This document shows, one piece after another, positions 8,893 to 30,917 of a stretch of DNA of 64,000 bases. Numbering within the stretch: the stretch's first letter is position 1; every line of letters starts with the position of its first letter. This stretch comes from Shinella sp. WSJ-2. Its GTDB lineage: Bacteria; Pseudomonadota; Alphaproteobacteria; Rhizobiales; Rhizobiaceae. A model generated the notes under the pieces. It was not told where the DNA came from and ran no database searches. It saw only the letters and a list, made by a program, of their open reading frames with translations. Made by a program: the position numbers and the translations under genes. The stretch lies in NCBI RefSeq assembly GCF_003432075.1, contig NZ_QWBU01000001.1:558001-622000 (forward strand). Direction: 5' to 3'.

Positions 8893-8900
8893 GTCGCAAA

Positions 8901-8954
8901 CGGCCCCCGCCCACCGCTTCGCAGGGAGCGGTTAGGCGGACCGGACGGGGGCCG
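8901..8954 (+). promoter_or_regulatory. Two-level stem-loop between binding protein and permease genes
   Basis: Outer arms CGGCCCCCG (8901-8909) and CGGGGGCCG (8946-8954) enclose inner arms CCGCT (8914-8918) and AGCGG (8927-8931). No T-run follows. The position matches the hairpin at 1841-1870 in the first importer, suggesting mRNA stabilisation of the binding-protein segment or partial termination. Confidence 0.6.
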
Positions 8955-8983
8955 GAATTCTCCAAACACAACACGGATTTCCC

Positions 8984-10674: not shown

Positions 10675-10679
10675 GACCG

Positions 10680-12160: not shown

Positions 12161-12323
12161 TCTCGATAGGACTCCAATGGGATAGACGGGTTAAGGCCGA
12201 TGGCTATCCAAAATCTTGGGTGACTGGCAAGAAGAACGGCTTCACATCTTCGGCATCGGCGCTTCGTTTCACCGAGGCGATGCAAAGCAGCCACGCCCGG
12301 CCCGGCAGAATGAGGGAAACACG

Positions 12324-12923
12324 ATGGCCCCTGTGGAAATCAATCCGGCGCATGTGCGCGAATTCGTGGATATCGACAGCTTCTATCGCTGGCTCGGCGA
12401 GAACCATGCCGGCGCGCCGGAAGTCTGGATCAAGATTCACAAGAAGGCATCCGGCCTGCCATCGATCACCGCCGAGGAGGCGATCGAGGCCGTGCTCTGC
12501 TGGGGCTGGATCGACGCCATCCGCAAGAGCCATGACGACAAGAGCTTCTTCCAGCGCTATTGCCCGCGCGGCAGGAAAAGCGTTTGGAGCAAGAAGAATG
12601 TCGAGACCGTCGGCCGGCTGATCGAGAGCGGGCGAATGACGGAACATGGCCTGAAACAGGTGGAAGCAGCAAAGGCCGACGGGCGCTGGGACAAGGCCTA
12701 TGGCAGCGGCAAGGACCTGAGGATTCCTGATGATCTCCAAGCCGCCATCGATGCCGAGCCTGCGGCCAAGGACATGCTGGCCAAACTGACCGCGCAGAAC
12801 CGCTTCGCGCTGGCATTCCGCATACACAACGTCAAGACAGAGGCCGCGCGCAAGCGACGGATCGAGGCTTTCGTGGAGATGCTGAAACGCGGCGAGACGA
12901 TCTATCCGCAAAGGCAGAAATAG
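12324..12923 (+). CDS. YdeI/OmpD-associated family protein
   Basis: A 199-residue cytosolic protein with the YdeI family pattern: VDIDSFYRWLGENHAGAPEVW, KASGLPSITAEEAIEAVLCWGWID, the FFQRYCPRGRKSVWSKKN stretch and a C-terminal ARKRRIEAFVEML. Some family members are linked to bacteriocin or stress tolerance, but the biochemical function is unclear. ATG 12324 is chosen for its GAGGG ribosome site; the frame continues upstream to 12216 without other support. It converges with the GH25 gene. Confidence 0.8.
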   Translation: MAPVEINPAHVREFVDIDSFYRWLGENHAGAPEVWIKIHKKASGLPSITAEEAIEAVLCWGWIDAIRKSHDDKSFFQRYCPRGRKSVWSKKNVETVGRLIESGRMTEHGLKQVEAAKADGRWDKAYGSGKDLRIPDDLQAAIDAEPAAKDMLAKLTAQNRFALAFRIHNVKTEAARKRRIEAFVEMLKRGETIYPQRQK

Positions 12924-12947
12924 ACCGTCCCGTTACGGCGGGTTGGA

Positions 12948-13988
12948 TCAGTCGGCGCTGGCCGTGCGTGTGCCCGACTGGCCGGCGAGCCAGTTGTGCC
13001 AATCATTCTCGCTGCCGGCAAAGACATTCAGGTCGATCTTGCCGGAAACGCCGTGCGACAAGCCCGAACCGGAATATTGCCAGAAGGTCCAGCGGCGGTT
13101 CGGGTAGCGCTTCGAGGGGTGGGCGGCGACCGAGCGCAGCCAGAACGGATATTGCGTCAACTCGCCCGAGAGGTTGTCCTCATAGAAGTCCGGCGCCGTG
13201 TAGATGATCGGGCGCTTGCCATAGTGGCGCTCCAGCATCTCGGCGAAGACCTTGATCTTTTCGACGTATTGCGCACGCGTCAAGCGCTTCTTGCACGCAG
13301 ATTCGCCGTTGTATTCCGCGTCGATGACCGGCGGCAGCGCATCGGGATCACGCGGCACGTTACGGATGAACCACTCAGCCTGGGAGCTTGCCACACGGCA
13401 CCAGTAGAAGAAGTGGTAGGCACCGCGGCGGATGCCGGCTTCCTTCGCCAGGCGCCAGTTCTTTTGGAACATCGGGTCGAGATGGTCTCCGCCATCGGTC
13501 GCCTTGATGAAGGCGAAGTTGGCGCCCTGCGTGCGCAGCTTCATCCAGTCGATATCGCCCTGCCAGCGCGATACGTCGACGCCGTGCACCTGATAGTTCT
13601 TCGGCGCGCGCTTGCCGAAATTGATCGGCTTGGCATCGCGGAACTGCTGGCTGTAGATGCGGGAGCGCTTGGCGGACCGCCCGCTCAACGGCGCTACGGC
13701 GAAGACCGCATTTTCCGGCCGTGTCTCGGGAACGGCCGCCTGCTTTTCCATGCTTTCGAAGACGTGGTTTTCCGGCATGGCACCGGCCCAGGCGAGCATG
13801 TCCGCACCCCCCTCTGCCTTCACCTTGCCCTCACCGACCGCGACTTCCGGAACAGGCCCCGCCTTCACGGAGCTGGTGACTTCCGAGGACGGTTTTATCG
13901 ACAGGGCAGTCTCTGGATTGGAGCTCGAGGCACAGCCCGCCATGGAGGCGCAGCCGAGCAGGATCGCTGTCAGGACCGAAAGACGCAT
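12948..13988 (-). CDS. Glycoside hydrolase family 25 (lysozyme-like) lipoprotein
   Basis: Putative N-acetylmuramidase of 346 residues. A lipoprotein signal with lipobox MAGC is followed by a disordered linker to about residue 130. The GH25 barrel then begins at YQVHGVDVSRWQGDIDW; the catalytic pair lies in PPVIDAEYNG, and RRWTFWQYSGSG closes the domain. Cellular lysozyme-like proteins of this kind are common in Rhizobiales chromosomes, and no phage genes surround it. ATG 13988 places the lipobox near residue 19; the frame continues upstream to 14027. Confidence 0.87.
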   Translation of the reverse strand: MRLSVLTAILLGCASMAGCASSSNPETALSIKPSSEVTSSVKAGPVPEVAVGEGKVKAEGGADMLAWAGAMPENHVFESMEKQAAVPETRPENAVFAVAPLSGRSAKRSRIYSQQFRDAKPINFGKRAPKNYQVHGVDVSRWQGDIDWMKLRTQGANFAFIKATDGGDHLDPMFQKNWRLAKEAGIRRGAYHFFYWCRVASSQAEWFIRNVPRDPDALPPVIDAEYNGESACKKRLTRAQYVEKIKVFAEMLERHYGKRPIIYTAPDFYEDNLSGELTQYPFWLRSVAAHPSKRYPNRRWTFWQYSGSGLSHGVSGKIDLNVFAGSENDWHNWLAGQSGTRTASAD

Positions 13989-14173
13989 AGGCACTCGCAC
14001 GCAATACAAATCGAAGCCCCCGTCCACAGCACGCAGACGGAATTACTAACGGAAGATTACCGCGAAATGTTAAATGCAAGGTTTACGCCAGCCGTGACAT
14101 TTCAGGCACTTAGCGCCATCAACTCTCATGATTCCTGCTGGTTTCCGGTCACGAAAGCGTGTCCGGTAGCCCG

Positions 14174-15841
14174 TCAGGCATTTCCGATCCTGATGTAACC
14201 GATATCCTTCTTCTCGATCTCGTCTAGCGATTCCTCGTAGCCGGCATCCGCGTAGCGGATCACGCCGAGCGATGTATCGTTGGTCAGCGCATGCTGCAGC
14301 CGCTCGGCTCCGCCGGCCGTGCCGTCGGCCACCAGCGTCACGCCGCAACTCGTCATGTACCCGGCATAACCGCCGCCGCCGGAGTGAATGACGACGAGAT
14401 CGGCCATCGATGACGAGAGCAGCATGGCATCGAGCAGCGGCCAGTCGGCGATGGCGTCCGAACCGTCCTTCATACGCTCGGTCATGATGTTCGGATGCGC
14501 CATGGCGCCGGCATCGAGATGGTCACGCGAGAAGGCGATTGGCCCATTCAGCTCGCCCGCCGCGACCAGCCTGTTGACCGCCAGCGCCAGCGCCGTGCGC
14601 TCGCCGTGGCCAAGCCAGGCAATGCGCGCCGGCAGGCCCTCGAAGGGCACGTTCTCGCGGGCAAGGCGGATCCAGTTGGTGACGATGAAATTGTCCGGGA
14701 ACATTTCCAGCACGAGATCGTCGATGCGGGCGATATCGCTTTCCTCGCCCGACAACGCCATCCAGCGGAACGGCCCGATGGCGCGCGCGAAAAGCGGGCG
14801 CAGATAGGCTTCGGTGAAAATCGGAATGTCGAAGGCAGCGGCCACGCCGCCCTCCCGCGCCTGGGTGCGGATGAGGTTGCCATTGTCGAAAACTTCCGAG
14901 CCCATTTTCTGGAAATCCAGCATGGCCGAGACATGCTCTACGATAGAGGCACGGCTTGCCGCCATCAGCTGCCCCTGCCCGTCGTCGCGCAGGCCCTTCA
15001 CCTGATCGAGGCTCATTCCCTTCGGCACGTAACCATAGACGAGATCATGCGCCGAGGTCTGGTCCGTGACGATATCGGGCACGATGCCGCGCCGCGCGAT
15101 CTCTGGATAAATCTCCGCCGCATTGCCGACGAGACCGATCGAGGTCGCGCGCTTTTCCTTGACCGCTTCGTCGATCATCGCGAGCGCCGTATCGAGATCC
15201 GACGCGACATGTTCGAGATAGCCGACGGCCTTGCGCGCCGCAGCACGGGCCGGATCGATATCGACGCAGAGAATGGCCGCGCCCGCCATGCGCCCGGCGA
15301 GCGGCTGCGCGCCGCCCATGCCGCCGAGGCCTGCGGTCAAAATGAAACGGCCGGCAAGGCTGCCGCCGAAGCGCTTTTCGGCAATGCGCATGAAGATTTC
15401 ATAGGTGCCCTGAATGACGCCCTGGCTGCCGATATATTGCCAGGCCCCCGCCGTCAGCCCGCCCCAGCAGATCAGCCCCTTGCGCTGAAGCTCATAAAAC
15501 ACCTCAGCCTTCGCCCACTGCCCGACGATGTTGCAATTCGCCATGATGACGAGCGGTGCCTTCACATGGGTCTTGAGGAGTCCGACCGGCTTGCCGGACT
15601 GGATGACCAGCGTCTGATCCTCGTCCATCTCCGTCAGCGCCTTGACGATGGCTCGGTGCGCCGCCCAGTTGCGCGCCGCCTTTCCGAGCGCCGCGTAGAC
15701 GATAAGATTGTCCGGGTCCTCGCCGACCGACAGCACGTTTTCGAGCAGCCGCAACAGCCCCTCCTGCCGCCAGCCCTTGGCACGCAGCACATCGCCACTG
15801 GGGATCGGATAGTTCGGATGACGCGGATTGGCTTTGGGCAT
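14174..15841 (-). CDS. Urocanase-family hydratase, probable thiourocanate hydratase
   Basis: Urocanase family (about 555 residues, usual family length) using NAD+ as an internal electrophile: QSGKPVGLLKTH, YIGSQGVIQGTYE, TAGLGGMGGAQPLA and TDQTSAHD are conserved. However, the glycine-rich active-site segment that reads HHGGGVGxGxSxHxG in true HutU reads HSGGGGYAGYMTSCG here (His486 to Cys499), and VYGGIGRAARNW is VYAALGKAARNW. That and the neighbours suggest it hydrates thiourocanate to 3-(5-oxo-2-thioxoimidazolidin-4-yl)propionate rather than urocanate. ATG 15841 has a GGCGGTG ribosome site; GTG 15850 overlaps the upstream stop. No hutI or hutG gene is nearby. Confidence 0.75.
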   Translation of the reverse strand: MPKANPRHPNYPIPSGDVLRAKGWRQEGLLRLLENVLSVGEDPDNLIVYAALGKAARNWAAHRAIVKALTEMDEDQTLVIQSGKPVGLLKTHVKAPLVIMANCNIVGQWAKAEVFYELQRKGLICWGGLTAGAWQYIGSQGVIQGTYEIFMRIAEKRFGGSLAGRFILTAGLGGMGGAQPLAGRMAGAAILCVDIDPARAAARKAVGYLEHVASDLDTALAMIDEAVKEKRATSIGLVGNAAEIYPEIARRGIVPDIVTDQTSAHDLVYGYVPKGMSLDQVKGLRDDGQGQLMAASRASIVEHVSAMLDFQKMGSEVFDNGNLIRTQAREGGVAAAFDIPIFTEAYLRPLFARAIGPFRWMALSGEESDIARIDDLVLEMFPDNFIVTNWIRLARENVPFEGLPARIAWLGHGERTALALAVNRLVAAGELNGPIAFSRDHLDAGAMAHPNIMTERMKDGSDAIADWPLLDAMLLSSSMADLVVIHSGGGGYAGYMTSCGVTLVADGTAGGAERLQHALTNDTSLGVIRYADAGYEESLDEIEKKDIGYIRIGNA

Positions 15842-15846
15842 CGTAT

Positions 15847-16389
15847 TCACCGCCTTGCATTTTCGAGTGCAATGTCCCTATCCATTCGGAATTCGGACAC
15901 CCACGTTTTAAGGATGGAATAGTAGTCGTCTGCCAGAATGGTTCGCTCCGTCAGATCACTGGCTTTTCCCACATCGTTTCGGAATGCAACGAGACGCACA
16001 TGCGCTCCTTGGTCGAACTGCAAGACATGACTGCCATCATCAAATGCAGCGTCCCCATCTGGGCACCAGATCACATTGCTCTCGAGAAAATCGTTCTGCG
16101 ATCGCGTCCAGTGATCTGTGTCACCGTAGAAACTCAAAAAATATAGCTCCGCCAGTTCTTCGGCTGAGAGAGATGCAAGTCGCTCACTCACATGGCTACC
16201 ACGCATCGCTAATCTTTGTTCAACCGCTTCCACAGAGCACCCCAGAAGCGTTGCCTCTGAATTGCGCACTCCAAAACGCCTGCCAGACAGGTGGATCAAG
16301 AAGAAACCGAGCGCTTGCTGTGACGTGTTTTCGACCGGGCACGATAGGCCGCTTTCCAGAGCGAAATTTTCGGTGTCACCGACAATCAA
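15847..16389 (-). CDS. Imm42-like immunity-family protein embedded in the ergothioneine operon
   Basis: A 180-residue acidic cytosolic protein, intact although it lacks an ATG. TTG 16389 overlaps the stop of the upstream DUF917 gene (TTGA) after a GGAGGAG ribosome site, and its own stop falls at 15847 just before the hydratase start, so it is translationally coupled at both ends. The opening VGDTENFALESGL, then LGFFLIHLSGRRFGV and LLGCSVEAVEQRL, resembles the Imm42 group of immunity proteins as I remember it. The ending ILADDYYSILKTWVSEFR is also plausible for that fold. No toxin gene is visible. Its base composition looks less GC-rich than that of its neighbours, which suggests later acquisition. 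Confidence 0.6.
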   Translation of the reverse strand: MIVGDTENFALESGLSCPVENTSQQALGFFLIHLSGRRFGVRNSEATLLGCSVEAVEQRLAMRGSHVSERLASLSAEELAELYFLSFYGDTDHWTRSQNDFLESNVIWCPDGDAAFDDGSHVLQFDQGAHVRLVAFRNDVGKASDLTERTILADDYYSILKTWVSEFRMDRDIALENARR

Positions 16390-17498
16390 GCACTCCTCCC
16401 GCTGCCAACGCCATTCAACGCGTAGCTGACGAGATCGATCCCCATGGCCTTTTCGACCGATGGATAAACCGTCGGATCGAGCACGCTGGAGGCGAGCGGG
16501 ATGATCGACTTCGGCACATGCAGTACGAAGGCCGTCATGCCGACTTCGAGCTGGCCGACGCTCAGCGGCTCGCCCTCGGGCGACAGCGTGGTGATGACAT
16601 CGGGGAAGGTGGCGCGACGTTTTCCGTCCGCCGATTCCACCGCCATATATTCGTTCATCACATGCAGCACCGAGGCCGTATCGCCCTTGCCGACCGTCAC
16701 CGTGCCGATGTCGAAGGCCTCCTTGGTATAGACCACCGACTTGTCGGTGATCACGCCTTCCGAGAGGATCGCGCCGCCGGTCGTCTTGACGATGGCGTCG
16801 ATGATCGCCGAGCCGCCCTTGCCTTCCGCCGCGATGATCGCCTCGCCGAGCGTCAGCGCCAGCGAGATGCCGCCGAGGGCAGCGTTCTTGCGGACGTAAG
16901 AGGCACGCAGTGGGTTGCGGCAGGAGGCGATGAAGCCGCCGGACATGTCGGAGGCGGTGCGCAGGATCGGCGAGACCTTTGCCGTCGCACCACGCACGAC
17001 GAGCTCGATGTAACGGTTCTCGTCGCGATTGCCGCCGACGGCCGTCTGGATCATCTGTTCGGGCGAGCCCGCCATGCCGATCGAGCCCATGTCGCCGGTC
17101 GGATGCGCGCGCATGTCGCCCACGGCATCCAGCACCTTGGTGCCGAGAATGGCGGAGGGCAGCCAGCCGTTCAGTGTCGAGGACTTGCCGTTCTGGCCGA
17201 CCATCAGCGCCGCGACCTTCTCGCCGAGCGCCTCCTGCAGAAGCTCCACTGCCTTCACATAATCGACGCCGCGCATTTCCCAGGGCGTGGTCGAGGCCGG
17301 CGCGCCGATGGCCGCCGCCGTCGCCACCCAATCGTCGTCGGAGAGTTCATCGATGGAGACCAGTTCCGGCTTGCCGATCGACACCGCCGCATAGCCGAGC
17401 ATGCGCCCATGGTCCGCCCAGCCGCCACCACCGGCGGCATAGACCGAGCCGCCCTTGACCGCCGCCTCGACGTCTTTTTCCTTTAAAATCCGGCCCAT
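16386..17498 (-). CDS. DUF917 / S-methyl-thiohydantoin desulfurase (S-Me-THD) family protein
   Basis: A 370-residue protein of the family formerly called DUF917, renamed for S-methyl-thiohydantoin desulfurase. Family landmarks are GSVYAAGGGGWADHGRMLG near the start, PASTTPWEMRG, MVGQNGKSSTLNGWLPSA and RAHPTGDMGSIGMAG (roughly residues 130-144), then a second domain of swivelling-hydantoinase type (PEGEPLSVGQLEVGMTAFVLHVP). In this operon it is the natural candidate to remove sulfur from thiohydantoin-5-propionate, giving hydantoin-5-propionate and sulfide. Its ATG overlaps the M20 stop (TAATG). The function is inferred from family name and context. Confidence 0.8.
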   Translation of the reverse strand: MGRILKEKDVEAAVKGGSVYAAGGGGWADHGRMLGYAAVSIGKPELVSIDELSDDDWVATAAAIGAPASTTPWEMRGVDYVKAVELLQEALGEKVAALMVGQNGKSSTLNGWLPSAILGTKVLDAVGDMRAHPTGDMGSIGMAGSPEQMIQTAVGGNRDENRYIELVVRGATAKVSPILRTASDMSGGFIASCRNPLRASYVRKNAALGGISLALTLGEAIIAAEGKGGSAIIDAIVKTTGGAILSEGVITDKSVVYTKEAFDIGTVTVGKGDTASVLHVMNEYMAVESADGKRRATFPDVITTLSPEGEPLSVGQLEVGMTAFVLHVPKSIIPLASSVLDPTVYPSVEKAMGIDLVSYALNGVGSGRSA

Positions 17499-18766
17499 TA
17501 GACGCTCTCCTGACTCAATGTCTCATCCAGCTGAATCACTGCATTAAAAAGCACCGCCGCCCCGAGCGCGATATCGTCGGTCTCGGCAAATTCCTCCGGC
17601 GCATGGCTGCGCCCGCCAAGGCACGGCACGAAGATCATCGCCGACCGCGTCACCTTTGCCATGAAGGCGGTGTCGTGGCCCGCGCCCGACGCCATGCGCC
17701 GGTGACTGGCGCCGGCCGTTTCGCAGGCGGCGTCCAGCACGTCGAGCAGCAGCGGATCTCCGGGTGTCGGCATGTTGTCGGAGATGCGGCGCGGCGCGGC
17801 GATGGTTGTGCCGGTCTCGCGCGCGATCCCATCGGCGAGTAGATCGACCGAAGCGGCGAAGAGATCCATTGCGTTGCGCTCTTCCGCCCGCGCATCGATC
17901 AGCAGGCGCGCGCGCGAGGGCACGACATTGGCGGCATTCGGCTCGATGGAGAACTCGCCGACCGTCGCCGTGAAATGGCCCGGCCCTTCCGAGAGCGATT
18001 TCGCCAGCGCCTCGATGCCCGAGACCAGCCGGGCGGCGGCGGCCAGCGCATCGGCGCGCGATCCCATCGGCGTCGTGCCGGCATGGTCCGCCCGGCCCTC
18101 GACGATGATCTCGATGCGTGTGATCCCGGCAATCGCCGTCACCACGCCGATATCCAGCTTTTCCGTTTCCAGCACCGGCCCCTGCTCAATATGCAGTTCG
18201 AGAAATGCGGAAATATCCTTGCGCGCTTCGGCCGCGATGCGCGCGGGATCGCCGCCGACATCGCGGATGCCTTGCTCCAGTGTCAGCCCATCCCGCTCGC
18301 GCGACAGCCAGTCCGCAGGCAGCACGCCGGCCATGCCGCGGCTGCCGATGCAGGAAACGCCGAAGATCGAGACCTCCTCGGCGAGGAAATCGACGACCTC
18401 CAGATCGTGATCCAGTTCGATGCCCTTGTCGGCCAGGGCCTGCGCCACTTCCAGCGCCGCCGCGACACCGGCAATGCCGTCATAGCGCCCGCCATCCGGC
18501 ACCGTATCCGAATGCGAGCCGAGCATGATCGTGCCGAGACCGGGCTTTTTGCCCGGCCGCCGGGCAATCAGATTGCCCGCGGCATCCACGCGTGTCTCGA
18601 GCCCCGCAGCCCGAAACCGTTCGTCGAGAAAATCCCGCCCCGCCGGGAACAGAGCGGTAAAGGCACGCCGCGTGTAGGGCCGGCCGGGCTCGGTGAGCCT
18701 GGCCAGCCCGTCGATCACATCCGCGATACGCGCGGGATCGACCGGCAAATTGCTTGCGCGGGCCAT
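17498..18766 (-). CDS. M20 amidohydrolase, probable N-carbamoyl-L-glutamate amidohydrolase
   Basis: A 422-residue two-metal enzyme of the AllC/hydantoin utilisation (HyuC) branch of M20. Metal ligands visible are His85 and Asp96 (GSHSDTVPDGGRYDG), Glu130-Glu131 (FLAEE), His192 (LHIEQGP) and His in GAGHDTAFMAK. The family hydrolyses N-carbamoyl amino acids or allantoate to the amine, CO2 and ammonia. Lying two bases after the hydantoinase-like gene, it should take N-carbamoylglutamate to glutamate, the last step of the proposed pathway. ATG 18766 is preferred; the frame continues upstream over the hydantoinase gene. Confidence 0.83.
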   Translation of the reverse strand: MARASNLPVDPARIADVIDGLARLTEPGRPYTRRAFTALFPAGRDFLDERFRAAGLETRVDAAGNLIARRPGKKPGLGTIMLGSHSDTVPDGGRYDGIAGVAAALEVAQALADKGIELDHDLEVVDFLAEEVSIFGVSCIGSRGMAGVLPADWLSRERDGLTLEQGIRDVGGDPARIAAEARKDISAFLELHIEQGPVLETEKLDIGVVTAIAGITRIEIIVEGRADHAGTTPMGSRADALAAAARLVSGIEALAKSLSEGPGHFTATVGEFSIEPNAANVVPSRARLLIDARAEERNAMDLFAASVDLLADGIARETGTTIAAPRRISDNMPTPGDPLLLDVLDAACETAGASHRRMASGAGHDTAFMAKVTRSAMIFVPCLGGRSHAPEEFAETDDIALGAAVLFNAVIQLDETLSQESV

Positions 18767-18768
18767 GA

Positions 18769-20145
18769 TCAGGCCCCCGTGGAAACAAGTGTCGGCAGCG
18801 GACGCACGAAGGCGCCGGTGCCGGGTTCGGAATGCACGTTCGTGCCGTCGAAGGCGAGTTTGCCACGCAGATAGGTCGCTGAGACGCGCCACGGCAGGCG
18901 GATGCCATTGTAAGGCGACCAGCCGACGACGTTGTGACCGCTGGCGGCGGCGTCATAGGTATAGGGCTCGGGCGTCAGCACAGTGATGTCGGCATCCTTG
19001 CCGGCCTCCAGCGCGCCCTTCACATGGTCGAGCCGGAAATGCCGGGCGGGGTTGAGTGCCATCAGCTCGGCAGCACGCGTCAGCGGAATGCCGCGCTCCA
19101 GCGCGCCCTTGACGAAGAGCGGCACCATGACCTCCAGCCCCGGCACGCCGGAGGCATTGGCCAGCATGTCCGGATTGGTCTTGCGGTCCTCCGACCAGCT
19201 GACATGGTCCGTCGAAACAAGCGTGACATTGCCCGCCGCGACATGGCGCCAGAGCTTTTCCACCTCGGCGCGCGGGCGGATCGGCGGATTGATCTTCGCC
19301 TTGCCGCCAAGCCGGGCAACGTCGTTCTCCTCGTCGAGAACGAGATAGTGGATGCAGCATTCGATGGTCGCGCGGTGTCCTTGCGCGCGATAGGCGGCGG
19401 CGATCTCGTAGCCGCGGCCGAGCGAGCAATGCACGACATGGGCCGGGCAGCCCGTTTCGGCACCGGTTTCATAGATCTGGTTTGAGGCGAGCAATTCGGT
19501 CAGCGGCGGGCGCGACAGGCCGTGCGCACGATAATCGGTGATACCCGCTGCCTTCACCTTGGCGATCGCTGCGCGCACCGCCTCGTCGTCCTCATTGTGC
19601 ACGCCGGCCGTCAGGCCCGTCGGCGCGATGGCGCGGAAGCAATCCTCCAGCAATGCCGCCGGAATCCGCGGAAAGCGCTTCGGGTCCGTGCCGAAGGTCG
19701 AGAACTTGAAGGCGGCGACACCCGCCTCGACCATTTCGGCAATGCGCGCCGGCCCTTCCTCGGGATCGACGGTGCCGTAGAGCGCGAAATCGACGCGCGC
19801 CTGCGGGCTCGCATGATCGACCTTGATCTTCACGGCCTCGGCCGAGCAGACGAGATTGCCCTCGTCATAGGGCATGTCGACAATGGTCGTGACGCCGCCG
19901 GCCGCCGCCGAGCGTGTCGACCAGATGAAATCCTCCTGGTTCTTCTGCGAGAGTGAATGGACCTGCGCATCGATGGCGCCGGGCAGGATCAGCGCACCGG
20001 AGAGATCGTGCCGCTCTTTCGCCGCCGGCATCGCGCCCTGGCCGACATGCACCACCTTGCCCTCCCGCACCGCGACATGGCCGCCTTCGACGATACGGTC
20101 CGGCAGAACCACGGTGCCTTTCAGAACGAGATCGAAATCGGCCAT
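18769..20145 (-). CDS. Dihydroorotase/hydantoinase-like amidohydrolase, probable hydantoin-5-propionate hydrolase
   Basis: A 458-residue cyclic amidohydrolase with the hydantoinase/allantoinase layout. Expected binuclear-metal residues are Lys147 (carboxylated; AAFKFST), His183 (GVHNEDD), His239 (HVVHCS) and Asp313 (VSTDH). The N-terminal HxH is unusual: the motif reads DAQVHS, so the first His is Gln61 and only His63 remains. In context it should open the hydantoin ring of hydantoin-5-propionate to N-carbamoylglutamate. A 10-nt gap separates it from the lyase gene upstream. Allantoinase or dihydropyrimidinase activity cannot be excluded by sequence alone. Confidence 0.78.
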   Translation of the reverse strand: MADFDLVLKGTVVLPDRIVEGGHVAVREGKVVHVGQGAMPAAKERHDLSGALILPGAIDAQVHSLSQKNQEDFIWSTRSAAAGGVTTIVDMPYDEGNLVCSAEAVKIKVDHASPQARVDFALYGTVDPEEGPARIAEMVEAGVAAFKFSTFGTDPKRFPRIPAALLEDCFRAIAPTGLTAGVHNEDDEAVRAAIAKVKAAGITDYRAHGLSRPPLTELLASNQIYETGAETGCPAHVVHCSLGRGYEIAAAYRAQGHRATIECCIHYLVLDEENDVARLGGKAKINPPIRPRAEVEKLWRHVAAGNVTLVSTDHVSWSEDRKTNPDMLANASGVPGLEVMVPLFVKGALERGIPLTRAAELMALNPARHFRLDHVKGALEAGKDADITVLTPEPYTYDAAASGHNVVGWSPYNGIRLPWRVSATYLRGKLAFDGTNVHSEPGTGAFVRPLPTLVSTGA

Positions 20146-20155
20146 CGGCTGGTCC

Positions 20156-21694
20156 TCACGGTTTCAGGGCAAAGAAGCTGTCGACATCCGCCATCGGCGC
20201 GGCATCGATGAAGGCGGCGAGCGCCTCGGGGCTGGCAAGGTCACGGTCGAGTGCCTCGATTTCGGCGGATAGCGGCCGGTCCTTGCGGTAGAAGGGGCTG
20301 ATCGCCCGCGTGCGCTGATAGGCAACGGCGGCGACACCCTCGGCATTGTCACCGGAAAGATCGATCGCCTGGGCGGAGAGCATGGCCTCCAGCGCCGCGA
20401 GCTGGCGCAGGTCCCGCACCTGACTTTCCATGCGTTCGACGATGAGCGGCAGGAAGGTCGCCTCCTCCTCCAGCCCGCCGGCCACGACGATGGATTGCGC
20501 CGAGATCGGCACCGCCAGCGACTGGATGCGCATGTAGAGTTCAACGGCGAGTTTCAAGAGCGGACCAAACCCTGTCGCCGCCTCGCCGGGCGCCACGAGA
20601 TTGACCGGCAGGTTGCGGCGCACGCCGTTGGACAGCAGCACGCAGCGGTTCAGCACGTTGCGGGCAAGATGGGCAAATCCGGTCTGCGCCGCCTCGACAT
20701 AGAGCGTGGTCGAAAGCGGCAGCGAACCACCCGAGGCCATGACATGGCTGTCCATCACGACCGGATTGTCATCCGACTGCGCCGTCGCCTCGACAAGCCG
20801 CTCGGCCGCAGTCATCAGCGTATCCAGGCACGCGCCAAAAACCTGCGCGGTCATGCGCAGGCTCAACGGATCGTGGATGGCCGACGGTTTCGGCCAATGC
20901 CCCGAGGTCGCCTGCGCCTCGAACCAGGTCCCGGCCAGCGCCTCGCCATGCGCCGAAAGCCGCGCCGCCACCCGCCACGGATCGGCCGAAGCGCCGAGCG
21001 CCAGCGACGAGAGCACGCCGGTCACCATCAGATTGCGGATAGCTTTCGCCGCCTCGCGCACGACATTGGCTGCAGCGGCATGCGAGATGGCGTTGACGCT
21101 GAGCGCCGCGAGCGCATCGCGCGGCTGCATACGATAGGGTTTCAGGCCGGCGCGCTTCAGTGCTTCCGGCGCCGGCAGGCGCTCGCCGCCATACCAGGCC
21201 TCGCCCTCGCCGGTCATGACGGCGGCGATCTGCCCCATCAGGCCGATATCGGCGCAGCCCATCGAGCCATGCCGTCGCACGACAGGCACGACATCCTTCT
21301 CCAGCAGCGCCAGGAAGGCATCGATCAGCTCCGGGCTGCATCCGGAATAACCGCCGAGCGCCGTGTTGACGCGGATCGCCATCGCCTTGCGTACGATCGG
21401 CAGCGTGAAGGGCTCGCCGGTGCCGAAATGGTGTGCCTTGACGAGATTGTTGTTGAACTCGACGAGATCGTCCGCCGTCCAGAGCTTGTCCTTCATCGAC
21501 CCGACGCCGGTATTGGCGCCGTAGATCGGCAGGCCCGTGGCAAGACGGTCGGTGATCACGAGACGCGACGTGCCGACGCGGCCCATGCCGATCTCGCAGG
21601 CCACCGGACGCCGCGCACCCGTGCCGATCGCCTCCAGCGTGGCGAAATCGAGCGGTTGGCCGGTGAGATAGAGCGTATCGGCGGAAGCGAGCAT
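20156..21694 (-). CDS. Histidase-superfamily lyase without MIO triad, probable ergothionase
   Basis: First gene of the operon, 512 residues, with the all-helical aromatic ammonia-lyase fold: YGANTGVGSMKDKLW near residue 55, the NNLVKAHHFGTGEP stretch, RHGSMGCADIGLMGQIAAV and a C-terminal AQSDDNPVV. True histidases make the MIO cofactor from Ala-Ser-Gly in GSVGASGDLAP; here the site reads Cys147-Ala148-Asp149, so MIO cannot form. Ergothionase, a member of this superfamily, eliminates trimethylamine from ergothioneine without MIO because the leaving group is already activated. The four downstream enzymes fit the rest of that pathway. ATG 21694 is the start that fits family length. Confidence 0.8.
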   Translation of the reverse strand: MLASADTLYLTGQPLDFATLEAIGTGARRPVACEIGMGRVGTSRLVITDRLATGLPIYGANTGVGSMKDKLWTADDLVEFNNNLVKAHHFGTGEPFTLPIVRKAMAIRVNTALGGYSGCSPELIDAFLALLEKDVVPVVRRHGSMGCADIGLMGQIAAVMTGEGEAWYGGERLPAPEALKRAGLKPYRMQPRDALAALSVNAISHAAAANVVREAAKAIRNLMVTGVLSSLALGASADPWRVAARLSAHGEALAGTWFEAQATSGHWPKPSAIHDPLSLRMTAQVFGACLDTLMTAAERLVEATAQSDDNPVVMDSHVMASGGSLPLSTTLYVEAAQTGFAHLARNVLNRCVLLSNGVRRNLPVNLVAPGEAATGFGPLLKLAVELYMRIQSLAVPISAQSIVVAGGLEEEATFLPLIVERMESQVRDLRQLAALEAMLSAQAIDLSGDNAEGVAAVAYQRTRAISPFYRKDRPLSAEIEALDRDLASPEALAAFIDAAPMADVDSFFALKP

Positions 21695-21861
21695 GTTTCG
21701 AGAAGCCTGTTTTTCAAAAGCAATTCCAGGACAGCGACGTGCGGTTTTCCGTCGGGAATTGCGTGTGGATGTTATGCGGAACGGGAACGGATCGTATATC
21801 CCAAAATCCGTACGGTTCATGCTATAAATCGAACAGCCAGCAAGAAGCCGAAGGACCCACC
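21695..21861. promoter_or_regulatory. Divergent promoter region, ergothioneine operon and LysR-type regulator
   Basis: This 167-bp gap must hold both promoters. It carries the palindromic repeat at 21720-21762. Nearer the regulator start is an AT-richer block, GGATCGTATATCCC and CCGTACGG followed by GCTATAAATC, with T-N11-A-like spacing as LysR-type proteins prefer. The -10-like TATAAA near 21825 would serve the regulator. Assignments are tentative. Confidence 0.4.
21720..21762 (+). repeat. Rhizobial intergenic palindromic element, copy 2
   Basis: A 43-bp element with inverted ends GCAATTCC (21720-21727) and GGAATTGC (21755-21762) and centre GCGGTTTTCCGTC, matching the copy at 4655-4698 in layout and orientation. 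It lies within the divergent promoter region of the lyase operon. Confidence 0.6.
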
Positions 21862-23016
21862 GTGGACCTATCCACACTTTGCCTTGTGCACAGCATTCTC
21901 GAAGAACGCGGCATCCGCAGGGCAGCCGCCCTGTGCCGCCGCCCGGCCTCCAGCGCAAGCGCCGCGCTACGACGGGTCGAGACCGTGTTGTCCGTACCGC
22001 TCGTGCGCCGGGATGGTCAGGCACTCGTGCCGACGCTGGAGGCGGAAGCCCGCCTGCCGCGCTTCGCCGACATTGCCCGCGCCGCCGCGGCACTTACCGC
22101 GCTCGGCGATGGCGACGGCACCATCCCGCTCACCGCCCTATCCCGTTTTGCAGCCACGGCCCGCGCCGGCAGCATTAACGCCGCCGCCAAAGCGCTCGGC
22201 CTCGGCCAGCCGCAACTCACCCGCCAGCTAAGCCATCTGGAAGCGGCCATCGGCTGCAAACTGCTCGACCGTTCGACCTCCGGCATAAGCTGCACGCCGG
22301 AAGGCCTGGAGGCGCTGGTACTCGCCGAACGCATCGGTGCCGCGTGGGAGCAGCTCTTCGCCGCCTCCGCCGAACGCTTCCGCCGCAGCGCCGCCACCTG
22401 GCGGCTCGGCACGATCATCCCCTTCGGCCACGAAAGCGAAATCGCCGCCATGCTGGCGCGGCTTGCCGTGGAGTGGCGAAGCGCACGCCCACGCCAGCCG
22501 CTCTTCCTGTCCTCCACCACCGCCGACGAACTCGTCTCCGGGCTGAAAAACCGACGTTTCGACCTGATCCTTCTCGACACGGACCACTATCCTGCCGAAT
22601 TTGACGGACAGCTGATCGGCCGTTCCCAACTCGCCCTCGCCGCCCCGCGCACGCTGGACCGGAACGAGAGACAGGACGTCGCAAACCTGCTACGCCGCTA
22701 CCCCATCGCCGTGCCAAGCCCGAAGAGCGGCCTGCGCCAGATGACCGATCGCTTTCTGGAAGCGACCCTCTCCCCGGCCGAGCGCTCCCGCCTGACGCTG
22801 GTCGAAGTCGATTCGATCCCCGTCATCATCAATCTCGTGCTGGACCACGGCCACCTCTCCGTGCTGCCCGAACATTCCGTCGCCAACATCAACCCACCAC
22901 CGACACTGCTCCCGCTCGACACCGCCTACCAGCAATCCCTCAGCCTCGTCTGGCCGCGAGACGCCCTCTCCCGGCAGGCGGCGGAGACGATGGTAAAGCT
23001 GATTGAGAGATCCTAA
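21862..23016 (+). CDS. LysR-type regulator with two tandem helix-turn-helix domains
   Basis: A 384-residue regulator, about 80 residues longer than usual. Residues 1-62 form a first LysR-like winged helix (LSTLCLVHSILEERGIRRAA, then ALRRVETVLSVPLVRR), and residues 89-150 form a second, more canonical one (LTALSRFAATARAGSINAAA, then LTRQLSHLEAAIGCKLLDRS). A periplasmic-binding-like effector domain follows (RFDLILLDTDHYPAEF, PVIINLVLDHGHLSVLP). GTG 21862 with GAAGG upstream is the likely start. It diverges from the lyase operon and most likely controls it, with ergothioneine or thiourocanate as a possible inducer. Confidence 0.8.
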   Translation: MDLSTLCLVHSILEERGIRRAAALCRRPASSASAALRRVETVLSVPLVRRDGQALVPTLEAEARLPRFADIARAAAALTALGDGDGTIPLTALSRFAATARAGSINAAAKALGLGQPQLTRQLSHLEAAIGCKLLDRSTSGISCTPEGLEALVLAERIGAAWEQLFAASAERFRRSAATWRLGTIIPFGHESEIAAMLARLAVEWRSARPRQPLFLSSTTADELVSGLKNRRFDLILLDTDHYPAEFDGQLIGRSQLALAAPRTLDRNERQDVANLLRRYPIAVPSPKSGLRQMTDRFLEATLSPAERSRLTLVEVDSIPVIINLVLDHGHLSVLPEHSVANINPPPTLLPLDTAYQQSLSLVWPRDALSRQAAETMVKLIERS

Positions 23017-24008
23017 CCCTTCGCGCCCGTCCTCAGGCGCCGGCGGGTCTCCGTCGGGCTTTCGTGATAGTGCGCGCGGTAGCTGCGCGAGAAGGCGGAG
23101 GAGGAGTTGAAGCCGGTGAGCGCGGCGATGTCGGCGAATTCGGCCTTGGTTTCGATGACCTTGCGCCGGGCAGCGTTGAGGCGCAGTGCCAGATAGTGCT
23201 GGTGGGGCGCGACGCCCATCGATTCCTGGAAGAGATCCTGGAGATGGCGGGCGCTGATGCCGACGCGCTTGGCGAGCCGCGTCAGGGTGAGCGGCGCATC
23301 CACCGTCTCCTCCATCAGCCGCACCGACTGGCTGACGCGCTGGTCGGCGACGCGCATGTTGCCGAGCGCCGGCACCTGCAAAAGGCCACCCGTGCGCTCG
23401 TGTTCGTAGATGAACAGCCGCGAGACCTCCAGCGCCAGCGAATAGCCCTGCCGGCGGCGGATGATCTCCAGCATAAGGTCGAGCGTAGGCAGAGAGCCGC
23501 CGGTGGTGATGCGCTTGCCGTCGATGACGTAGCGCTCGCGCATGACGGCGATCTGCGGGTAACGCGAGGCGAACTCCTCCATGTCCTCCCAGTGGATCGT
23601 CACGGAATGGCCGTTGAGCAGACTCGCTTCGGCAAGCAGCCAGCTGCCCGATTCGATACCCGCCATCATCGAGCGATAGCGCGCCGTCTGCGAAAGCTGG
23701 CGCCGCAACAGAGGCGTCGCACTCATCTGCCATTGATAGCTCGACAGCACGAAGAGCGGATGGGCTTCCTTATCCGGCCGGAACACGCCGTCGACGGGCA
23801 CGGGAATGCGGCTGCGCGTCTCCACCGGCGCGCCATCCGGCGAGAAGATGCGCCAGCGATAGAGGTCCTGGCCGGAGATGCGGTTGGCCGCGCGCAAGGG
23901 TTCGATGACCGAGGCGACGAGGATGAGGTTCGTCTCGGGCAGCACGAGAATATCGATGTCGAGTGTATCGGCGGATGGATCGAGCATGGCGGCATCCTGC
24001 TTTTTCAT
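23013..24008 (-). CDS. GlxA-type AraC-family regulator, CdhR-like
   Basis: A 331-residue regulator with an N-terminal DJ-1/PfpI-like domain (DIDILVLPETNLILVASVIEP, then FVLSSYQWQMSATPLLRRQL, GIESGSWLLAEASLL) and a C-terminal AraC DNA-binding domain (LTRLAKRVGISARHLQDLFQ, then FNSSSAFSRSYRAHYHESP). This is the architecture of CdhR, the activator of carnitine dehydrogenase genes in Pseudomonas. It diverges from the carnitine operon. The start is uncertain between ATG 24008 and ATG 23987; the latter has a clearer AGGA site. Its stop overlaps the convergent LysR gene by 4 bp. Confidence 0.83.
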   Translation of the reverse strand: MKKQDAAMLDPSADTLDIDILVLPETNLILVASVIEPLRAANRISGQDLYRWRIFSPDGAPVETRSRIPVPVDGVFRPDKEAHPLFVLSSYQWQMSATPLLRRQLSQTARYRSMMAGIESGSWLLAEASLLNGHSVTIHWEDMEEFASRYPQIAVMRERYVIDGKRITTGGSLPTLDLMLEIIRRRQGYSLALEVSRLFIYEHERTGGLLQVPALGNMRVADQRVSQSVRLMEETVDAPLTLTRLAKRVGISARHLQDLFQESMGVAPHQHYLALRLNAARRKVIETKAEFADIAALTGFNSSSAFSRSYRAHYHESPTETRRRLRTGAKG

Positions 24009-24101
24009 CTCTCGAATTGTCAAGGATGGATCCGAAAAGTGAAAGCATTGCGCCTTCTCTTGGCTCGTAATGGACCCAACAAGAATTCTGGGAGAGACCA
24101 C

Positions 24102-25013
24102 ATGCCCTTAGCCATGAACCGTGATGTCTTCATCACCTGCGCCGTCACCGGCTCCGGCGACACCGCCGGCAAATCGCCCCACGTTCCGCGTTCGCCCAAG
24201 CAGATTGCCGAATCGGCAATCGACGCCGCAAAGGCCGGTGCCGCCGTCGTGCATTGCCACGTCCGCGATCCCGAAACCGGCGCACCGAGCCGCCGCAACG
24301 ATCTCTACCGCGAAGTGACCGAGCGCATCCGCGATGCGGAAGTCGACGTGGTGTTGAACCTTACCGCCGGCATGGGCGGCGACATGATCTTCGGCAATAC
24401 CGAACAGCCGCTGCCGCTCAACCCCGTCGGCACCGACATGGTGGGCGCCACCGAACGTGTTAGCCACGTCGCCGAATGCCTGCCGGAAATCTGCACGCTC
24501 GATTGCGGCACGATGAACTTCTCGCTTGGCGACTACGTGATGACGAACACGCCGTCGATGCTACGCGCCATGGGCAAGATGATGACCGATCTCGGCGTGC
24601 GCCCGGAAATCGAAGCCTTCGACACCGGCCATCTCTGGTTCGCCAAGCAGCTCGTCGAGGAAGGCGTCATCGAGGATCCGGTCCTCATCCAGCTCTGCAT
24701 GGGCATTCCGTGGGGCGCGCCCGATGACCTGAACACCTTCATGGCGATGGTCAACAACGTACCGGCCAACTGGACCTTCTCGGCCTTCTCCATCGGCCGC
24801 AACGCCATGGCCTATCCGGCGGCGTCCGTACTCGCCGGCGGCAATGTCCGCGTCGGCCTGGAAGACAATCTCTATGTCGGCAAGGGCCAGCTCGCCACCA
24901 ATGCGCAGCTCGTCGAAAAGGCCGTGAACGTCGTTGAAAGCATGGGCGCCCGGATCATCGGCCCGGCCGAAGTGCGCGAGAAGCTGAAACTCCAGAAGCG
25001 GGCACCGAAATGA
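24102..25013 (+). CDS. BKACE-family beta-keto acid cleavage enzyme, dehydrocarnitine type
   Basis: A 303-residue TIM-barrel zinc enzyme of the beta-keto acid cleavage (DUF849) family, which transfers acetyl-CoA onto a beta-keto acid. Visible residues are VVHCHVRDPETG with metal His, VLNLTAGMGG, LDCGTMNF and EAFDTGHLWFA. With carnitine dehydrogenase beside it, the substrate should be 3-dehydrocarnitine, giving acetoacetate and betainyl-CoA. GGGAGAG precedes ATG 24102, and the stop overlaps the next start (ATGA). An orthologous arrangement has been described in Sinorhizobium meliloti. Confidence 0.88.
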   Translation: MPLAMNRDVFITCAVTGSGDTAGKSPHVPRSPKQIAESAIDAAKAGAAVVHCHVRDPETGAPSRRNDLYREVTERIRDAEVDVVLNLTAGMGGDMIFGNTEQPLPLNPVGTDMVGATERVSHVAECLPEICTLDCGTMNFSLGDYVMTNTPSMLRAMGKMMTDLGVRPEIEAFDTGHLWFAKQLVEEGVIEDPVLIQLCMGIPWGAPDDLNTFMAMVNNVPANWTFSAFSIGRNAMAYPAASVLAGGNVRVGLEDNLYVGKGQLATNAQLVEKAVNVVESMGARIIGPAEVREKLKLQKRAPK

Positions 25014-26503
25014 GCCAGATCAACAAGGCAGCCTGCGTCGGCGGCGGCGTCATCGGCGGCGCCTGGGTCGCGCGTTTCGCGCTCGCCGGCATCGACGTCA
25101 AGATTTTCGATCCGCATCCGGAGGCCGAGCGCATCATCGGCGAAGTCATGGCCAATGCCGAGCGCGCCTACGGCATGCTCACCATGGCGCCATTGCCGCC
25201 GAAGGGCAAAGTCACCTTCTGCAAGAGCATCGAGGAAGCGGTGCAAGACGCTGACTGGATTCAGGAAAGCGTGCCCGAACGCCTGGAGCTGAAGCGTGGC
25301 GTGCTGACCCAGATCGATGCGGCGGCAAAGCCCGACGCCCTGATCGGCTCGTCCACGTCAGGCCTGATGCCGACCGACCTGCAGCGCGACATGAAGCATC
25401 CCGAACGCCTGTTCGTAGCGCATCCCTACAATCCCGTGTACCTGCTGCCGCTGGCCGAACTCGTGGGTGGTCAGAAGACCTCGCGCGCCGTTCTCGAAGA
25501 CGCCAAGGCCAAGCTCGCGCCTATCGGCATGAAGGGCGTGATCATCAACAAGGAGATCGAGGCCTTCGTCGGCGACCGTCTTCTGGAAGCTGTCTGGCGC
25601 GAAGGCCTCTGGCTCATCAAGGACGACATCTGCGACACCGAGACGCTCGACGACGTGATCCGCTATTCGTTCGGCATGCGCTGGGCGCAGATGGGCATGT
25701 TCGAAACCTACCGCATCGCCGGTGGCGAAGCCGGCATGCGCCACTTCCTCGCCCAGTTCGGTCCCTGCCTCTCCTGGCCGTGGACGAAGCTCACCGATGT
25801 CGTCGATCTCAATGACGAACTGGTCAACAAGATCGCCGACCAGTCGGACGCCCAGTCCGGCGCACGCGGCATCCGCGAGCTGGAGCGCATCCGCGACCAG
25901 AACCTCGTCGGCATCATGCACGCGCTGAAGGCGGGCGACGACGGCAAGGGCTGGGGGTCGGGCAAGCTGCTCGCCGAGTTCGAGGAACATCTCTGGGCCA
26001 AGGCCGGCAAGGCGAAGGTCGAGGTTTCCGTAAGCGAACCGCTGCGCCTGATCGATACCAAGGTCAATGCGGCCTGGGTCGATTACAACGGTCACATGAC
26101 GGAGCACCGCTATCTCCAGCTGTTCGGCGATACGTCTGATGCGCTGCTGCGGCTGATCGGCGTCGATTTCGCCTATGTCGAGGCCGGCCACAGCTACTAC
26201 ACGGTGGAAACCCACATCCGCCATCTCGGCGAAGCCAAGCTTGGCCAGGCGCTCTACACGACGCTGCAGCTTCTCTCGTCCGACAGCAAGCGGCTGCACT
26301 ACTTCACCCGCATCCACGATGCGGCGAGCGGCGGCGTGATCGCAACAGCCGAACAGATGATGGTCCATGTCGACTCGAAGGCCGGCAGGAGCGTCGAGGC
26401 ACCCGAAGAGGTGCTGGCGAAGATCAAGCCGATCGCCGACGCCCATGCCAAGCTGGCGACGCCCGACGGCGCCGGCCGCAGCGTCGGGCAGAAGCGCGCT
26501 TAA
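25010..26503 (+). CDS. lcdH: L-carnitine dehydrogenase fused to betainyl-CoA thioesterase
   Basis: A 497-residue fusion. Residues 1 to about 320 form a 3-hydroxyacyl-CoA dehydrogenase-type NAD enzyme (GGGVIGGAWVARF at 9-21, PERLELKRGVL, STSGLMPTDL, HPYNPVYLLPLAE). Residues from about 335 form a hot-dog thioesterase (LIDTKVNAAWVDYNGHMTEHRYL, SYYTVETHIRHLGEAKLG). The N-part oxidises L-carnitine to 3-dehydrocarnitine. After the BKACE enzyme acts, the C-part hydrolyses betainyl-CoA to glycine betaine and CoA. The fusion is typical of alphaproteobacterial carnitine pathways. Confidence 0.9.
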   Translation: MSQINKAACVGGGVIGGAWVARFALAGIDVKIFDPHPEAERIIGEVMANAERAYGMLTMAPLPPKGKVTFCKSIEEAVQDADWIQESVPERLELKRGVLTQIDAAAKPDALIGSSTSGLMPTDLQRDMKHPERLFVAHPYNPVYLLPLAELVGGQKTSRAVLEDAKAKLAPIGMKGVIINKEIEAFVGDRLLEAVWREGLWLIKDDICDTETLDDVIRYSFGMRWAQMGMFETYRIAGGEAGMRHFLAQFGPCLSWPWTKLTDVVDLNDELVNKIADQSDAQSGARGIRELERIRDQNLVGIMHALKAGDDGKGWGSGKLLAEFEEHLWAKAGKAKVEVSVSEPLRLIDTKVNAAWVDYNGHMTEHRYLQLFGDTSDALLRLIGVDFAYVEAGHSYYTVETHIRHLGEAKLGQALYTTLQLLSSDSKRLHYFTRIHDAASGGVIATAEQMMVHVDSKAGRSVEAPEEVLAKIKPIADAHAKLATPDGAGRSVGQKRA

Positions 26504-26634
26504 AAAGGATCGCCGCGGCGCCGAGAGGAACGGCGCCCGGCGTGACACTTCAGCCTCTCCCGGCCTCCGGGGGAGACGCCCGCCAAGGGCACCGGCCACT
26601 ATGCGGCCAGCAAAAGAATTCGAGGGGGAATGCC

Positions 26635-27795: not shown

Positions 27796-27802
27796 TCAGA
27801 GA

Positions 27803-30642: not shown

Positions 30643-30917
30643 GAGCGCGCCCCTGCATCGGGCGCGATCCGAAACTTTCCATAAGCCTGGCTTGTGGCGA
30701 AAATAGATATTTTAGGGCGTTACATACGCCCTATCGATAGATAACTTTATAGATCACGAGCCGCATTGCGGCAGGAATAGGAGGCTTCCGGGAGACGTGA
30801 CGACGCCGGCATCTGCATAAAAAGCCGGTCGTAAGGTTGCCTTAAAGGCAAAAAACAGAAATTCTGCCAACCATAACGACAAATGCCCAAAATGGGCGCA
30901 GCAAAGGGAACAGGGGA
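30643..30917 (+). promoter_or_regulatory. Promoter region of the Dpp-type transporter with inverted repeat
   Basis: This 275-nt gap is AT-richer than its surroundings. It holds an inverted repeat TAGGGCGT (30713-30720), 5-nt spacer, ACGCCCTA (30726-30733), flanked by AT-rich ATAGATATTT and ATCGATAGATAAC. It is a candidate operator for the transporter. An AAAGGGAACAGGGG ribosome site precedes the binding-protein start. Nothing coding is seen. Confidence 0.5.

What the first reader, a model, noticed from the sequence alone, without database searches (positions are those of the whole stretch)
14174..23016. Complete five-enzyme ergothioneine-to-glutamate operon with its own regulator
Genes in order from the promoter: MIO-less histidase-like lyase, hydantoinase-like hydrolase, M20 N-carbamoyl amidohydrolase, DUF917/S-Me-THD protein, Imm42-like protein, urocanase-like hydratase. 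Known steps of ergothioneine breakdown are: ergothionase (gives trimethylamine and thiourocanate), thiourocanate hydratase, removal of sulfur from the thiohydantoin propionate, hydantoin ring opening, and N-carbamoylglutamate hydrolysis. Each step has a matching family here, and no hutI, hutG or hutF is present. It would be annotated by default as a broken hut operon. Released trimethylamine, sulfide, CO2, ammonia and glutamate would make the compound a C, N and S source.
Basis: partly seen in the sequence, partly recalled or inferred. Interest (0 to 1): 0.9.

Follow-up and report, generated by a model that had tools for sequence, protein, structure and literature searches.

The report
Ergothioneine-breakdown operon in Shinella
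A soil bacterium carries a set of genes that looks complete for turning the mushroom antioxidant ergothioneine into glutamate by an already published five-step route, and its first enzyme belongs to a separate branch of the enzyme family.

Summary
Observation confirmed, interpretation supported. The window lies in a Rhizobiaceae genome close to Shinella. The minus-strand operon 14174-21694 encodes lyase, ErtD, ErtE, ErtC, an Imm42-like protein and ErtB. Four of the five enzymes pass NCBIfam cut-offs for ergothioneine-catabolism equivalogs, so it would not be annotated as a broken hut operon. The pathway is published (Beliaeva 2021; seen only as a citation). The lyase has no specific NCBIfam model. 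It lacks the MIO triad, shares key positions with Treponema ergothionase, and forms its own strongly supported clade on the ergothionase side of the tree. The order LysR<-A-D-E-C-B recurs in 17 of 18 fetched relatives; none of those 17 has the Imm42-like gene, which looks like recent cargo. Among 32 same-order genomes with the desulfurase, 16 have a betaine-type ABC transporter directly after this lyase within the cluster, and in 2 more lyase and transporter sit together apart from the core. In 5 of 32 no lyase with this signature was found. Verdict: a new member of a known pathway, with a deep-branching ergothionase class and a separable uptake-plus-lyase module. No activity was measured.

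The parts
20156..21694 (-). MIO-less PF00221 lyase, proposed ergothionase (first step, releases trimethylamine)
   Evidence: Best solved relative T. denticola ergothionase 6s7j, E 9.1e-55; residues K68, D69, D308, K381, E409 shared with it, C147 in place of its Glu; own clade, 100/100, apart from histidases
18769..20145 (-). ErtD, hydantoin-5-propionate amidohydrolase
   Evidence: NF058538 803 bits, cut-off 600
17498..18766 (-). ErtE, N-carbamyl-L-glutamate amidohydrolase
   Evidence: NF058540 598 bits, cut-off 520; the generic PRK12893.1-5 scores higher, 664, cut-off 486
16386..17498 (-). ErtC, thiohydantoin desulfurase (DUF917/S-Me-THD)
   Evidence: NF058529 597 bits, cut-off 440; S-methyl model NF058532 285, cut-off 450
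15847..16389 (-). Imm42-like gene inserted between ErtC and ErtB; cargo, not a pathway part
   Evidence: PF15593 37.0 bits, cut-off 27.2; absent from 17 of 17 related operons; G+C 0.52 against 0.65 and 0.64
14174..15850 (-). ErtB, thiourocanate hydratase
   Evidence: NF058530 1041 bits, cut-off 930; S-methyl model NF058531 728, cut-off 880; the generic hutU model is also over its cut-off, 679 against 375
21862..23016 (+). Divergent LysR-type regulator with two HTH_1 stretches
   Evidence: PF00126 in two stretches plus PF03466; two stretches also in 3 of 3 relatives tested
21796..21834 (.). Conserved block in the LysR-lyase intergenic region, candidate operator or promoter
   Evidence: Alignment of 17 intergenic sequences; coordinates checked; binding inferred

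Best explanation
It is an ergothioneine-utilisation operon. The lyase eliminates trimethylamine from ergothioneine to give thiourocanate, without MIO cofactor. ErtB hydrates it to the thiohydantoin propionate. ErtC exchanges sulfur for oxygen and frees sulfide. ErtD opens the hydantoin to N-carbamoyl-glutamate. ErtE cleaves that to glutamate, CO2 and ammonia. A divergent double-HTH LysR protein probably regulates it. Shown: gene content, families, conserved order, lyase residues and clade, transporter linkage in relatives. Inferred: each reaction, the substrate, the regulation. The lyase is a deep-branching second class of ergothionase, which outside Rhizobiaceae usually sits beside a betaine-type ABC importer.
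For: Four NCBIfam equivalogs over cut-off. Lyase: nearest solved relative is ergothionase; 29 of 29 clade members lack the MIO triad and have the Lys and Asp found in T. denticola ergothionase, while 9 of 9 histidases have the triad and Val; a 97/92 branch puts clade and known-type ergothionases on one side, histidases on the other. Order kept in 17 of 18 loci. A betaine-type ABC (OpuAC/OsmF) beside the lyase in 19 loci, which fits a quaternary-amine substrate. The genome has no EgtD match and its own separate HutH and HutU.
Against: Only about 30% identity to any lyase of known activity. Cys, Thr or Ala replaces the Glu of T. denticola, L052, L054 and L138. Long branches meet in the tree, so the sister relation is not certain. 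Single signature residues are not exclusive: Lys-383 also in L106 and L154, Lys-Asp 63-64 also in MIO lyases L149-L151, and one clade member (L152) has Arg-Asp. The window and 24 further Rhizobiaceae loci have no linked transporter, and the OsmF model names glycine betaine, not ergothioneine. For EgtD no control genome was over cut-off.
Confidence: 0.87

Rival explanations
1. The lyase and operon act on another trimethylated histidine betaine (S-methyl-ergothioneine, ergothioneine sulfonate, hercynine or selenoneine).
For: The lyase clade is distant from enzymes of known substrate; an ergothioneine-sulfonate pathway from Agrobacterium radiobacter is cited in PMC13405746 (title seen in its reference list).
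Against: ErtB and ErtC pass the thio models and fail the S-methyl ones; the reverse holds for the Agrobacterium pAt cluster L056. Hercynine would not need a desulfurase. Selenoneine cannot be excluded as a side substrate.
Confidence: 0.08
2. The lyase releases ammonia from 2-thiohistidine rather than trimethylamine from ergothioneine; the rest of the route is the same.
For: The product would also be thiourocanate, so ErtB to ErtE would fit.
Against: No MIO triad, which ammonia elimination in this family normally needs (established knowledge); the lyase sits beside a betaine-type transporter in relatives.
Confidence: 0.02
3. A diverged or broken histidine-utilisation (hut) operon.
For: The lyase and urocanase-like protein belong to the hut superfamilies; the generic hutU model is over its cut-off.
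Against: Specific ert models win for four proteins; the lyase lacks MIO and is outside the histidase clade; a separate HutH and HutU exist.
Confidence: 0.02

Closest known systems
Five-step bacterial ergothioneine catabolic pathway (Beliaeva, Leisinger, Seebeck 2021, ACS Chem Biol 16:397; seen as a reference in PMC9732360; its content is recalled) and the NCBIfam Ert models
   Same: All five enzyme families in one cluster; ErtB, ErtC, ErtD and ErtE over the curated cut-offs
   Different: The lyase belongs to a separate clade from T. denticola ergothionase and the lyases beside ert genes in P. denitrificans and B. arboris; an Imm42-like gene is inserted
Ergothionase of Treponema denticola (6s7j, 6s7q)
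   Same: No MIO triad; shared Lys-Asp, DDNP, Lys and Glu positions
   Different: About 30% identity; Glu to Cys at the former MIO site; an 11-residue deletion
S-methyl thiourocanate / S-methyl thiohydantoin clusters (example Agrobacterium tumefaciens pAt, L056)
   Same: Same downstream layout; ErtD and ErtE models over cut-off in both
   Different: There ErtB and ErtC are of the S-methyl type, with GST-like and S/N-oxide reductase genes and no lyase annotated in the fetched stretch
Histidine utilisation (hut)
   Same: Homologous lyase and urocanase
   Different: No MIO; hydantoin instead of imidazolone route

Membership tests
Ergothioneine catabolic (ert) operon | Thiourocanate hydratase over curated cut-off | tested here: met
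   NF058530 1041 against 930
Ergothioneine catabolic (ert) operon | Thiohydantoin desulfurase over curated cut-off | tested here: met
   NF058529 597 against 440
Ergothioneine catabolic (ert) operon | ErtD and ErtE over curated cut-offs | tested here: met
   NF058538 803 against 600; NF058540 598 against 520
Ergothioneine catabolic (ert) operon | Growth on, or conversion of, ergothioneine | not testable with these tools
   Needs bench work
Ergothionase | PF00221 fold family without MIO triad | tested here: met
   PF00221 278.6 bits; GCA-D in place of GASGD
Ergothionase | Lys and Glu at the T. denticola positions (recalled as Lys-384 and Glu-411; paper not held) | tested here: met
   K381 and E409 align
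Ergothionase | Same clade as known-type ergothionases | tested here: inconclusive
   Own 100/100 clade; same side as ergothionases of a 97/92 branch against histidases; long-branch warning
Ergothionase | Trimethylamine release from ergothioneine | not testable with these tools
   Needs an enzyme assay
S-methyl-ergothioneine type cluster | NF058531 and NF058532 over cut-off | tested here: not met
   728 against 880 and 285 against 450
Histidine ammonia-lyase (HutH) | Ala-Ser-Gly MIO triad; HutH models over cut-off | tested here: not met
   No triad; TIGR01225 217.5 against 539 and NF006871 222.9 against 524

The most novel reading that the evidence does not exclude
Ergothioneine breakdown is built from two separable modules: an entry module (a second class of MIO-less ergothionase plus a betaine-type ABC importer) and a D-E-C-B core. 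Some bacteria keep the core without such a lyase, often beside amino-acid-type or TRAP carriers, and live on thiourocanate released by others.
Probability: 0.42. Interest if true: 0.5.

Novelty: new member of a known kind. Interest (0 to 1): 0.36.

Why it matters
It points to a widespread soil route that returns the carbon, nitrogen and sulfur of ergothioneine to general metabolism: 32 of 397 sampled genomes of the order carry the desulfurase over cut-off. A 2026 survey (passages read in PMC13405746) searched with a Burkholderia ergothionase, found only ammonia-lyase similarities, and called the enzyme restricted, while warning of divergent homologues. A lyase class that current models name only as histidase-like would be missed by such a survey, so ergothioneine breakdown and the trimethylamine from it may be undercounted. 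The residue pattern here, used as a set, gives a sequence test for it.

Tried and rejected
Rejected: broken hut operon; S-methyl variant; the Imm42-like protein as a hidden subunit. It has no counterpart in 17 related operons, and its DNA matched only the window genome's own loci. Of five ErtC-ErtB gaps printed, two are 20 and 33 bases, two (L006, L011) hold another small ORF that looks TfoX-like by eye (recalled, not searched), and one (L018) is 431 bases that I did not analyse. PADLOC gave nothing.

The structure prediction of the lyase gave mean pLDDT 54 and was not used. The pathway papers by Beliaeva, Maurer and Zhou are not held. Six literature searches listed no paper on this lyase class or on ergothioneine use by Shinella; that covers the open-licence library only. 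The Agrobacterium radiobacter ergothionase cited in PMC13405746 may belong to this clade; I could not check, so I do not claim that the class is biochemically unknown.

I first thought that clusters without a nearby lyase lack ergothionase. Whole-genome checks of the 9 such order genomes showed an intact lyase of this class elsewhere in 3, only fragments in 1, and none with the full signature in 5 (G707 is about 90% complete; G653 has one MIO-less lyase, L154, with Lys-383 but not the other positions). For the plasmid records L047, L048, L051, L053 and L058 other replicons were not examined. The carrier contrast is not clean: L134 (lyase on another contig) has the betaine-type ABC, L158 has TRAP genes beside lyase and betaine-type ABC, and L133 has a weak amino-acid-type binding-protein hit (30%).

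A test for a methylamine-assimilation marker (TIGR03105) gave nothing over cut-off, so the fate of trimethylamine is open.

Of 23 plasmid records with a desulfurase-like match I fetched 12 by that list. For the tree 9 Shinella loci were left out as near copies, short or truncated lyases (such as L122, L129, L131, L132) did not reach the length limits, and 9 of the 50 collected rows were dropped (fragment L139 and 8 near copies). In L120 no ErtD or ErtE was found in the fetched stretch.
Full report
OBSERVATION. The minus strand of 14174-21694 encodes, from its promoter end: a PF00221 lyase (20156-21694), a hydantoinase-like protein (18769-20145), an M20 hydrolase (17498-18766), a DUF917/S-Me-THD protein (16386-17498), an Imm42-like protein (15847 to about 16389, start uncertain) and a urocanase-like protein (14174-15850). 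A LysR gene is divergent at 21862-23016. The window is G000:C1:558001-622000 of a 5.14 Mb genome. The ten Shinella loci (L006-L015) have lyases 91-99% identical.

FAMILIES. NCBIfam gives function-specific matches over cut-off for four enzymes: ErtD NF058538 803 bits (600), ErtE NF058540 598 (520), thiohydantoin desulfurase NF058529 597 (440), thiourocanate hydratase NF058530 1041 (930). Generic models are also over cut-off for ErtE (PRK12893.1-5, 664 against 486, which scores higher) and ErtB (hutU, 679 against 375). The S-methyl counterparts fail: NF058532 285 (450), NF058531 728 (880). The Agrobacterium pAt cluster L056 scores the other way (NF058532 555 against NF058529 272; NF058531 976 against NF058530 725), so the models discriminate. 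Only the lyase would be left as histidase-like (TIGR01225 217.5, cut-off 539). The lyases beside ert genes in P. denitrificans (L052) and B. arboris (L054) also have no specific model.

THE LYASE. The best solved relative is T. denticola ergothionase 6s7j (E 9.1e-55), about 30% identical. One search aligned 50 lyases, 29 of this clade. All 29 lack the Ala-Ser-Gly triad and have Lys at index 383 and Asp at index 308 of the 6s7j chain as printed; all 25 that cover it have Lys-Asp at 63-64. All 9 histidases have Ala-Ser-Gly and Val at 383, and none has Lys-Asp. T. denticola, L052, L054 and L138 share Lys-Asp, Asp and Lys, but have Glu at 142 where this clade has Cys, Thr or Ala. Single positions are not exclusive: L106 and L154 have Lys-383, the MIO lyases L149-L151 have Lys-Asp 63-64, and clade member L152 has Arg-Asp. 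Window numbering: K68, D69, C147, D308, K381, E409. That Lys-384 and Glu-411 are catalytic in T. denticola is recalled, not read. A maximum-likelihood tree of 41 rows makes the clade one group (21 rows, 100/100) and known-type ergothionases another (5 rows, 96/90; one of them, L140 of S. meliloti, has Ala at 383); a 97/92 branch separates both from the 15 histidases and other lyases. The tool warned that long branches meet, so a sister relation of the two ergothionase groups is likely, not certain.

CONSERVATION. Of the 18 loci (L006-L022) have LysR<-A-D-E-C-B in this order; in L021 the lyase comes as two pieces. The 18th, L023, holds an MIO histidase. None of the 17 has the Imm42-like gene, and its DNA matches only the window genome's own loci. 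Its G+C is 0.52 against 0.65 and 0.64 for ErtC and ErtB, and ErtC is 370 residues here against 361-366 aligned in relatives. It looks like recent cargo.

DISTRIBUTION AND MODULES. In a sample of 398 genomes of the phylum, 6 have the desulfurase over cut-off, all in the same order. In 397 genomes of the order, 32 have it; I fetched the surroundings of the other 31. A lyase of this class lies near it in 23 of 32, the window included. In 16 of these 23 a betaine-type ABC transporter follows the lyase, before ErtD (in L120 before ErtC); in the one example annotated, L117, the binding protein is PF04069 OpuAC and passes the OsmF glycine-betaine model (491 against 400). In the other 9 genomes: in G647 and G711 the lyase sits elsewhere, next to such a transporter; in G642 it is on another contig while the transporter stands at the core; in G719 only fragments remain; in G289, G580, G596, G653 and G707 no lyase with the full signature was found. 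With the plasmid locus L050, lyase and betaine-type ABC are neighbours in 19 loci. In 25 Rhizobiaceae loci, the window included, no such neighbour was found (24 genomes, as L019 and L063 are one). The window genome has a full four-gene relative of the L117 transporter on contig C25 at 64-77% identity, unlinked. Cores without a nearby lyase have amino-acid-type ABC genes (L047, L053, L058, L062, L113, L115), TRAP genes (L048, L051, L135), the betaine-type ABC (L134) or none that my queries recognised (L110, which ends with its contig, L111, L124, L130). L053 has no ErtB in the fetched stretch; L113 and L115 have no ErtD or ErtE there. L052 and L054 have a known-type ergothionase with an MFS gene between it and ErtB. 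The simplest reading is that the lyase module imports and cleaves a quaternary amine and that the core can also be fed from outside; the second half is a hypothesis.

REGULATION. The LysR protein shows two HTH_1 stretches, as do 3 of 3 relatives tested (L016, L048, L051), two of them from cores without a nearby lyase. The intergenic region has a conserved block at 21796-21834 in an alignment of 17 sequences. Binding is inferred.

PHYSIOLOGY. The genome has a separate HutH and HutU on contig C4. It has no match to EgtD, though no control genome was over that model's cut-off either. The neighbouring genes 23013-36064 look like carnitine degradation: carnitine 3-dehydrogenase 904 bits (cut-off 592), with BKACE, acyl-CoA dehydrogenase, a CoA ligase, a crotonobetainyl-CoA hydratase-like protein below its cut-off and an oligopeptide-type ABC transporter. 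BKACE, the carnitine dehydrogenase and the AraC-type regulator are within the flanks of 16 of the 17 relatives (L021 ends too early).

VERDICT. The pathway is published (Beliaeva et al. 2021, citation only), so this is a new member of a known kind. What is added is a deep-branching ergothionase class, its link to a betaine-type importer, and cores without it.

Noticed in passing
window 23013-36064: Carnitine-degradation-like cluster next to the operon (AraC-type regulator, BKACE, carnitine 3-dehydrogenase, acyl-CoA dehydrogenase, CoA ligase, hydratase, ABC transporter), conserved beside it in 16 of 17 relatives.
   Followed up: partly
window 15847-16389; L006 15280-15656; L011 15295-15670: The ErtC-ErtB junction is a variable slot: an Imm42-like gene here, another small ORF in two Shinella relatives, 20-33 bases in two others.
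   Followed up: partly
L056 (Agrobacterium tumefaciens pAt) 7878-16248: S-methyl-type ErtC and ErtB with ErtE, ErtD, a GST-like and a TMAO/DMSO-reductase-like gene and no lyase annotated in the stretch; the role of the reductase is unexplained.
   Followed up: partly
L057 (Lichenihabitans) 12670-14202: A similarly laid out cluster that includes a lyase with an intact MIO triad passing the HutH models.
   Followed up: no
L055 (Deinococcus sp. KNUC1210) 9039-10574: An MIO-less lyase beside ErtB- and ErtC-like genes that lacks the Lys-383 equivalent; ErtB and ErtC there stay under all specific cut-offs; the amidohydrolase is annotated as two overlapping genes.
   Followed up: no
L140 (Sinorhizobium meliloti pSymA) 7923-9563: Known-type ergothionase relative with Ala in place of Lys-383 and Gln in place of Glu-142, near a gene annotated as dimethylsulfoniopropionate lyase.
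   Followed up: no
L138 (Paracoccus saliphilus) 7914-9602: Ergothionase-type lyase placed directly after a complete-looking hut cluster.
   Followed up: no
L002 (G000 contig C24); also L102, L103, L104: A further PF00221 lyase in the window genome whose triad region aligns as SAG followed by a gap; its own group in the tree, function not explored.
   Followed up: no
L160 (G719 contig C22): Lyase of this class present only as fragments in a genome whose core sits beside TRAP genes.
   Followed up: partly
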